This document shows, piece after piece, positions 56,123 through 56,532 of a stretch of DNA of 64,000 nt. Under the pieces are notes generated by a model. It was not told the DNA's origin. It did not search any database and saw nothing but the letters and a program-made list of their open reading frames with translations. Origin of the DNA: Gammaproteobacteria bacterium (lineage in GTDB: Bacteria > Pseudomonadota > Gammaproteobacteria > Pseudomonadales > Halieaceae). Position 1 is the stretch's first letter. Every line of letters begins with the position of its first letter. Location of the stretch: NCBI GenBank assembly GCA_024644535.1, contig JAHEKX010000010.1:1-64000 (forward strand), given 5' to 3'. Position numbers and translations under genes: made by a program.

Positions 56123-56532
56123 AATTTTTGCGCTTGCACACCACAGTGTGGTGCGGCTTACTACAACAATCAGGGCTGCGCTACGCCCCAAATTTTTGCG
56201 CTTGCACACCACAGTGTGGTGCGGCTTACTACAACAATCAGGGCTGCGCTACGCCCCGAATTTTTGCGCTTGCACACCACAGTGTGGTGCGGCTTACTAC
56301 AACAATCAGGGCTGCGCTACGCCCCAAATTTTTGCGCTTGCACACCACAGTGTGGTGCGGCTTACTACAACAATCAGGGCTGCGCTACGCCCCAAATTTT
56401 TGCGCTTGCACACCACAGTGTGGTGCGGCTTACTACAACAATCAGGACTGCGCTACGCCCCGAATTTTTTTACGCTTGCACACCACAGTGTGGTGCGACT
56501 TTCTAAAATAACCAAGGCTGCGCTACGCCCCG
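56123..56532 (-). repeat. Six 68-70 bp tandem units made of tRNA-Pro 5' sequence
   Basis: Six head-to-tail units abutting the 5' end of tRNA-Pro: five of 68 bp and the outermost of 70 bp (56463-56532). On the tRNA strand each has the first 17 bases of the tRNA (GGGGCGTAGCGCAGCC), an inserted ATTGTTGTAGTAAGC-like stretch, GCACCACACTGTGGTG (the anticodon stem without the anticodon), and a linker AAGCGCAAAAATT. The tRNA itself sits in the register of a seventh unit. The outermost unit is the most diverged. There are no unique spacers, so it is not CRISPR. Confidence 0.95.

What the first reader, a model, noticed from the sequence alone, without database searches (positions are those of the whole stretch)
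56123..56532. Tandem array of tRNA-Pro-derived units feeding into tRNA-Pro(GGG)
Six 68-70 bp units, head to tail, sit directly upstream of an intact tRNA-Pro on its own strand and in phase with it. Each unit holds the first 17 bases of the tRNA, a 15-nt insertion where the D-loop would be, the anticodon stem with the anticodon bases missing, and a common linker. They could be replication-slippage satellites, RNase P or processing decoys, or small stem-loop RNAs cut from the merR-tRNA transcript. The units nearest the tRNA are nearly identical and the farthest is the most diverged, consistent with growth next to the tRNA. I do not know a described system of this form, but a search could show one.
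Basis: partly seen in the sequence, partly recalled or inferred. Interest (0 to 1): 0.85.

Follow-up and report, generated by a model that had tools for sequence, protein, structure and literature searches.

The report
tRNA-derived hairpin array in tRNA-Pro leader
In one unnamed bacterial genus the start of a proline tRNA gene has been copied up to six times between the gene's promoter and the gene, and the copies are conserved as small RNA hairpins more than neutral DNA should be, so they may be a working leader rather than junk.

Summary
In detail: six head-to-tail units (70 + 5x68 bp, 56123-56532, minus strand) abut tRNA-Pro(GGG), between a promoter-like site and the tRNA, so they should form the tRNA's transcribed leader. 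Two congeners carry the array with 3 and 1 units; another congener's contig stops in the leader. My searches found it in no other genus.

Unit positions outside the tRNA-like parts differ by 6-22% between species (10-30% on a stricter set), while four-fold sites of neighbouring merR plus ihfA differ by 51-62%. That argues for constraint and against a neutral satellite. Each unit folds into two hairpins; the first, with a U-rich stretch after it, resembles a weak intrinsic terminator. My best reading is a leaky, attenuator-like leader array. Constraint is supported; attenuation is inferred.

The nearest known kind is the tRNA-linked repeats (TLR/rtT), which copy the tRNA 3' end downstream. The 68-bp units fail that definition (5' part, upstream, no TLR core). 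The same locus also has TLR-like 3' repeats, and a TLR core model matches 164 of 370 sampled genomes of the class; 52 of 70 inspected matches lie beside a tRNA or tmRNA. I call the array a mirror-image new variant of tRNA-linked repeats.

The parts
56543..56571 (-). promoter-like site (CTGGCA, 17 nt, TATAAT) upstream of the array
   Evidence: 10 of 12 matches. The stretch TTGCGTATAATCGCGGCCTCA is also in G001 and G004, but the same scan reports no promoter-like site there
56533..56542 (-). 10-nt leader CGCGGCCTCA between promoter-like site and first unit
   Evidence: in G002 the contig ends in a similar leader, CGCGACCTC
56463..56532 (-). unit 1 (70 bp, promoter-proximal, most diverged)
56395..56462 (-). 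unit 2 (68 bp)
56327..56394 (-). unit 3 (68 bp)
56259..56326 (-). unit 4 (68 bp)
56191..56258 (-). unit 5 (68 bp); hairpin A plus U-rich tail at 56259-56228, best terminator-like score of the units
56123..56190 (-). unit 6 (68 bp), abuts the tRNA
56046..56122 (-). intact tRNA-Pro(GGG)
56014..56039 (-). intrinsic-terminator-like site after the tRNA
55814..56061 (-). 3'-side direct repeat, period 143 bp, with one extra copy of the tRNA 3' end (55903-55918) and of the terminator (55867-55895); TLR-like
56573..56947 (-). merR-family regulator gene upstream (context)
56919..57218 (-). ihfA (context)
   Evidence: ORF; name recalled from the sequence

Best explanation
The array is a tRNA-derived RNA leader. 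Partial copies of the 5' part of tRNA-Pro(GGG) were tandemly duplicated between the gene's promoter and the gene in an ancestor within this genus and then reshaped. Each unit gained one base that lets the old acceptor strand (CGGGGC) fold back on the old D-loop (GCCCUG) as hairpin A, a U-rich insert right after that hairpin, and a closed 8-bp anticodon-like hairpin B. The units hold no T arm, 3' acceptor strand or CCA and cannot be tRNAs. I think it works in cis: RNA polymerase leaving the promoter crosses a series of weak terminator or pause hairpins before the tRNA, so unit number and hairpin strength set how much tRNA-Pro(GGG) is made; copy number grows and shrinks next to the tRNA. Shown by sequence: position, architecture, presence in three congeners with 6, 3 and 1 units, lower divergence than neutral sites. 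Inferred: ancestry, transcription, attenuation, effect on tRNA dose.
For: Promoter-like site and 10-nt leader directly upstream of unit 1. Same arrangement in congeners G004 (3 units) and G001 (1 unit); G002's contig ends in a similar leader. None of 27 other-genus loci with an identical tRNA has an exact 12-nt or longer tRNA copy within 600 nt upstream. Positions 18-35 and 47-60 of the units differ at 2-7 of 32 between species, against 51-62% at pooled four-fold sites of merR and ihfA: 11 of 11 comparisons (units 1 and 5 of G000, all units of G001 and G004), p 3.7e-4 to 1.4e-8. On a stricter set without tRNA-like positions (23-35, 54-60) 2-6 of 20 differ, p 0.011 to 2e-5. Comparisons share sequences. 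Stem B: 0 of 16 stem positions vary over 10 units (8 distinct); its loop varies at 2 of 3. Stem A: 4 of 12 positions vary, each C/T facing G, which keeps G-U pairs in the sense RNA (4 of 5 C against 0 of 6 G, p 0.015). Array folding energy z = -6.2 against 100 shuffles (repeated palindromes help this). Hairpin A plus T-rich tail is flagged terminator-like in 6 of 6 units here (region total 8 against 1.9 in shuffles), 2 of 3 in G004, 1 of 1 in G001. BIMEs, some similar to rtT, are said to attenuate transcription upstream of a tRNA reporter (PMC2965389, passages).
Against: The classical terminator score (formula recalled) is above zero for only 2 of 8 distinct units (-26.8 to +6.5), against +38.7 for the tRNA's own terminator; two units (-24.3, -26.8) score no better than the intact tRNA (-23.8). 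So termination would be weak at best. The promoter scan found no site in the congeners' loci, although the -10 region is identical. A thermodynamic test that I expected to show hairpin A protecting the tRNA gave the opposite (mean acceptor pairing 0.03 with real units, 0.86 without the extra base). No RNA data. Ten units from three species is a small sample; a C-to-T mutational bias could mimic the stem A pattern; horizontal transfer of a very short tract could mimic low divergence.
Confidence: 0.38

Rival explanations
1. Neutral satellite: slippage or unequal crossing-over next to the tRNA makes copies, and gene conversion between units keeps them alike; no function.
For: Copy number differs 6, 3, 1; units 2-6 are homogenised within G000.
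Against: Between-species identity of positions that are not tRNA-like is above that of four-fold sites in the genes next door (weaker on the stricter set); conversion within a species or with the tRNA cannot conserve such positions between species.
Confidence: 0.22
2. Trans-acting small hairpin RNAs or decoys are cut from the leader (for RNase P, RNase E, Hfq or an RNA-binding protein).
For: Two stable hairpins per unit; AU-rich linkers; RNAs of downstream rRNA-linked repeats are released and bind Hfq and CsrA in E. coli (PMC8144298).
Against: By eye the units have no GGA in a loop, and they have no TLR core; no RNA data.
Confidence: 0.17
3. DNA-level site array: the 8-bp inverted repeat of hairpin B (CGCACCAC-3 nt-GTGGTGTG) is a repeated operator, perhaps for the adjacent MerR-type regulator.
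For: Both arms kept, with a variable 3-nt spacer, in 10 of 10 units.
Against: Does not explain hairpin A, whose changes keep pairing only on the sense RNA strand; merR is present in relatives without the array, such as G005, G007 and G008.
Confidence: 0.1
4. Decayed tRNA-linked repeat (TLR) array: the units are what is left of pseudo-tRNAs that carried the TLR core in their D-loop.
For: In other genomes the TLR core sits in upstream tRNA copies, in the T-loop (L134; L157), the anticodon loop (L170) or the D-loop (L144); the genus has TLR cores at several tRNAs.
Against: The core model finds at most 3.3 bits in the array with filters off; by eye the insert does not resemble the core ends.
Confidence: 0.1
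5. Assembly artefact.
For: 28-contig assembly; near-identical units whose sum exceeds a usual short read.
Against: Other assemblies, G004 (3 diverged units) and the single-contig G001 (1 unit), show the same structure. The copy number in G000 remains open.
Confidence: 0.03

Closest known systems
tRNA-linked repeats (TLRs) of E. coli, including rtT/RttR at tyrT (Rfam RF00391) and RrA/B/F in rRNA operons
   Same: Tandem repeats tied to a tRNA gene, made partly of that tRNA's sequence plus structured non-tRNA sequence, in the same transcription unit
   Different: TLRs carry 18-19 bp of the tRNA 3' end and lie downstream (PMC8144298, Introduction); the 68-bp units carry the 5' part, lie upstream between promoter-like site and tRNA, and lack the TLR core
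Pseudo-tRNA copies with a TLR core upstream of tRNA-Ser/Arg (seen here: L108, L134, L152, L156, L157)
   Same: Copies of the tRNA 5' part, missing the normal 3' end, directly upstream of the intact tRNA on its strand
   Different: Longer units with the TLR core in a loop; the Pro units are 68 bp with only a short insert
BIME/REP elements acting as attenuators
   Same: Palindromic repeats said to attenuate transcription upstream of a tRNA reporter (PMC2965389, passages)
   Different: REP/BIME consensus not tested here; those are dispersed, the array is at one locus of one genus

Membership tests
tRNA-linked repeats (TLR/rtT) | unit ends with 18-19 bp of the 3' end of the linked tRNA | tested here: not met
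   68-bp units carry tRNA 1-17 and 24-35, no 3' end. The separate 3'-side repeat at 55814-56061 carries 16 nt (tRNA 62-77)
[quoted passage not shown]
   array is upstream; the 3'-side repeat is downstream. PMC4986893 (passages) places two RtT-family RNAs of Actinobacillus upstream of tRNA genes, so the place alone is not absolute
tRNA-linked repeats (TLR/rtT) | four-hairpin core (model R1, which recovers the E. coli rtT repeats) | tested here: not met
   R1 hits the three E. coli tyrT repeats at 33-37 bits; in window 55780-56640 its best hit is 17.3 bits, on the opposite strand and outside the array; at most 3.3 bits touches the array
Intrinsic terminator / attenuator | GC-rich hairpin followed by a U tract | tested here: inconclusive
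   9 of 10 units flagged by a consensus scan; classical score above zero for 2 of 8 distinct units
Intrinsic terminator / attenuator | RNA 3' ends or reduced read-through at the site | not testable with these tools
   needs RNA mapping or a reporter
tRNA gene or pseudogene able to form a cloverleaf | detected by tRNA models | tested here: not met
   ARAGORN and Rfam tRNA find only the intact gene
BIME/REP | REP palindromic unit consensus | not tested
   resemblance of rtT to BIMEs is taken from PMC2965389 only

The most novel reading that the evidence does not exclude
A copy-number-tuned terminator ladder: a bacterium turned the front half of a tRNA gene into a tandem attenuator in that gene's own leader, so that adding or losing 68-bp units re-sets the dose of tRNA-Pro(GGG). 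It would be the 5' mirror image of tRNA-linked repeats and the first array of this kind known to me.
Probability: 0.2. Interest if true: 0.75.

Novelty: new variant of a known kind. Interest (0 to 1): 0.55.

Why it matters
It shows tRNA-derived tandem repeats on the 5' side of a tRNA, with measurable constraint, at a locus where copy number varies between species. That makes an old open question, what tRNA-linked repeats do, testable with a simple reporter series. The related core elements matched in 164 of 370 sampled genomes of the class and the GGA found in two apical loops of most of the cores from 70 inspected loci suggest that the CsrA binding reported for E. coli RrB may be common.

Tried and rejected
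Insulation: I thought hairpin A locks the extra acceptor strands away so that the true tRNA can fold. A global fold contradicted it, although co-transcriptional folding could differ; dropped as a claim.

Rfam near-matches of the array itself (mir-497, up to 27 bits against a cut-off of 62) I take as chance matches to the palindrome. Viral collection: 0 matches of the unit pattern. Genome collection: 1 record, identical to G004's contig; near relatives may be left out by the tool. A tandem 5'-copy pattern for tRNA-Pro over 274 genomes of the class found only the window's genome; it needs exact letters, so diverged arrays would be missed, and the 140-genome family search could likewise miss diverged ones.

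Coding: the three plus-strand frames are open through units 2-6 and part or all of unit 1. Not pursued: the period is not a multiple of 3 and no start signal was sought. Integration-site reading (att repeats) was considered for the 3'-side repeats and not tested. First alignments of the TLR core misaligned hairpins and were replaced by A3.

Limits of the TLR survey: model R1 was built from 5 sequences, alignments A5 and A6 are fitted to it, large scans use stricter filters, and the GGA count leans on high-scoring matches and on seeds that share it; the copies at tRNA-Lys and Ser-gct of the window's genus lack GGA in both loops and the Val copy has it in one (by eye). 18 of 70 inspected matches had no same-strand tRNA or tmRNA within 700 nt, 5 of them at contig or locus edges, 2 with a tRNA-Phe on the other strand. 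No random-position control was run for this adjacency. Literature: 10 text searches in open-licence papers only; the 1991 rtT paper is not held, Rudd 1999 was not looked up; subscription papers were not seen.

Full report
What is there. On the minus strand, promoter-like site (56571-56543), 10-nt leader, six units (56532-56123) and tRNA-Pro(GGG) (56122-56046) follow each other without gaps. A unit reads: tRNA bases 1-17, one extra base, a short U-rich insert in the D-loop, the 5' anticodon stem closed by a 3-nt loop onto a partner arm, and a linker ending AAAAATT. On the other side of the tRNA a 143-bp direct repeat holds a second copy of the tRNA 3' end and of the terminator.

Relatives. In 140 genomes of the family, 3 match the array at E 0.001: the window's genome and two congeners. 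G004 has 3 units; G001, a single-contig genome, has 1 unit. G001 also carries 7 further copies of the tRNA 3' end downstream, spaced 121 bp once and then 143-144 bp (an eighth pattern match 1.2 kb further on is not counted). G002's contig ends in a similar leader; for G003 neither the neighbouring merR nor this tRNA was found. None of 27 other-genus loci with an identical tRNA has an exact 12-nt or longer tRNA copy within 600 nt upstream; 2 of 27 have one downstream, L013 with 22 nt and L022 with 12 nt. A unit pattern over the genome collection found one record, G004's.

Constraint. Over 60 aligned positions and 10 units, 8 of them distinct, stem B varies at 0 of 16 positions while its loop varies at 2 of 3. 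Stem A varies at 4 of 12, each time C/T opposite G. Positions 18-35 and 47-60 differ by 2-7 of 32 between species, against 47 of 93, 55 of 89 and 50 of 87 pooled four-fold sites in merR plus ihfA (the lowest single-gene value among these pairs is ihfA G000-G001, 16 of 41). Because a few of those positions resemble the tRNA, I repeated it on 20 positions that do not: 2-6 of 20 differ, p 0.011 to 2e-5 in 11 of 11 comparisons. The comparisons share sequences and are not independent; units 2, 3, 4 and 6 of G000 were not compared separately. By eye merR already differs within about 50 bp of the array, so a transferred tract would have to be short. I take this as evidence that the units are maintained.

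Mechanism. The two changes that set a unit apart from the tRNA's own 5' end, the extra base and the U-rich insert, together produce a hairpin followed by a U-rich stretch. A consensus scan flags it in 9 of 10 units. A stricter score calls it weak: above zero in 2 of 8 distinct units, and in two units no better than the intact tRNA. Weak terminators or pause sites in series before a tRNA are the reading I find most likely. A trans-acting hairpin RNA uses the same anatomy and cannot be excluded without RNA data. The global fold of the whole leader does not favour the native tRNA acceptor stem, which counts against a chaperone-like role. The promoter scan finds the site in G000 only.

The wider setting. 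Of 83 tRNA gene contexts examined (G000, G001 and some Pro loci of other genomes), 17 have exact partial copies (12 nt or more) of the tRNA within 1.2 kb: 10 in G001, 5 in G000, 2 elsewhere; all are on the tRNA's strand except three of the four at tRNA-Ala (L085). Several downstream copies contain a common four-hairpin core framed by T-arm sequence. A covariance model of this core (R1, 5 seed sequences from three other genomes) finds copies at tRNA-Lys, Val, Tyr, Ser and Arg in the window's genus and the rtT repeats of E. coli K-12 tyrT at 33-37 bits plus one copy in the tyrT-tyrV spacer at 32 bits. So these are tRNA-linked repeats (TLRs; PMC8144298, which reports 22 at ten loci in E. coli K-12). 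R1 matches 164 of 370 genomes sampled from the class, 45 of 140 of the family and 70 of 299 sampled from the phylum, including genomes of another class. Of 70 loci inspected, 52 have a same-strand tRNA or tmRNA within 700 nt: 24 of 30 top-scoring and 28 of 40 lower-scoring. In 44 the element is downstream, 37 of these 60-93 nt after the tRNA, and in 8 upstream. On alignments fitted to the model, 24 of 26 pairs change on both sides. GGA occurs in the loops of hairpins 1 and 4 in 45 and 44 of 47 and in 56 and 53 of 60 sequences, against 2 and 2 of 47 and 8 and 10 of 60 in the other two loops; the seeds share this, so it is a biased count, but it fits the CsrA-binding loops shown for E. coli RrB.

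Membership. The 68-bp array has neither the core, nor the 3' end, nor the downstream place that define TLRs. It is their 5'-side counterpart, found only in this genus so far. The 3'-side repeat of the same tRNA has the TLR geometry but only a weak opposite-strand core match (17.3 bits), so I call it TLR-like.

Literature seen: PMC8144298 (Introduction in full; abstract and passages of the rest), PMC2965389, PMC4986893, PMC8092127 and PMC7657543 (passages), other papers in search listings only. PMC4986893 reports RtT-family RNAs upstream of tRNA-Asn and tRNA-Lys genes in Actinobacillus with northern signals. PMC8092127 reports RtT sRNA upregulated at low temperature in Thioalkalivibrio. No title or passage that I saw describes a tandem array of tRNA 5' parts upstream of a bacterial tRNA.

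Noticed in passing
R1 matches, e.g. L141-L170, L172-L211, L227-L239: tRNA-linked repeat cores are spread far beyond E. coli: 164 of 370 class-level and 70 of 299 phylum-level genomes match; in 52 of 70 inspected loci they lie beside a tRNA or tmRNA, most often Ser or Arg.
   Followed up: partly
alignments A5, A6: GGA sits in the apical loops of hairpins 1 and 4 of most high-scoring cores and seldom in hairpins 2 and 3, a CsrA-type signature; biased by the seed model.
   Followed up: partly
L170, L144, L134, L157: The core also sits in upstream pseudo-tRNA copies, in the anticodon loop (L170), D-loop (L144) or T-loop (L134, L157), as if it enters hairpin loops without a target duplication (by eye).
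   Followed up: partly
L121, L130, L133, L135, L137-L140 (genome G391): Copies matching AaHKsRNA22, 7 of 8 loci without a tRNA, lie beside AAGTGCGGT motifs (uptake signal, recalled), in L138 between an inverted pair.
   Followed up: no
L108 downstream of Ser-gct, L105 Leu-taa, window 55814-56005, L008: A second, different repeat type (CCGGCCCTCAAGCA...GCGGCTCGAAATCC) is shared, by eye, by the 3' arrays of tRNA-Pro, Leu and Ser-gct in this genus.
   Followed up: no
L007 3037, L008, L055 2212, L099 1089: Similar sequence (TACCGGACACATGGGTAACAC-like) follows on the end of several arrays, as if an insertion element favours them.
   Followed up: no
L013 and several of L022-L038, leaders: In many other genera of the family the short leader between TATAAT and tRNA-Pro folds a small hairpin with changing sequence before a T-rich end; in the window's genus the array takes that place.
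   Followed up: no
L104, L088, L108, L091: tRNA-Ser(gga) and tRNA-Ser(gct) of the genus also have upstream copies (tRNA 1-58/64 and 1-72) with the TLR core; the Ser-gga copy includes the region before the gene.
   Followed up: partly
window 19434-19515 and 37466-37542: Two other tandem repeats: CTCCTG x13.7 and an 18-bp unit x4.3, both periods multiples of three.
   Followed up: no
window 55829-56576, plus strand: The three plus-strand frames are open across units 2-6 and part or all of unit 1.
   Followed up: no
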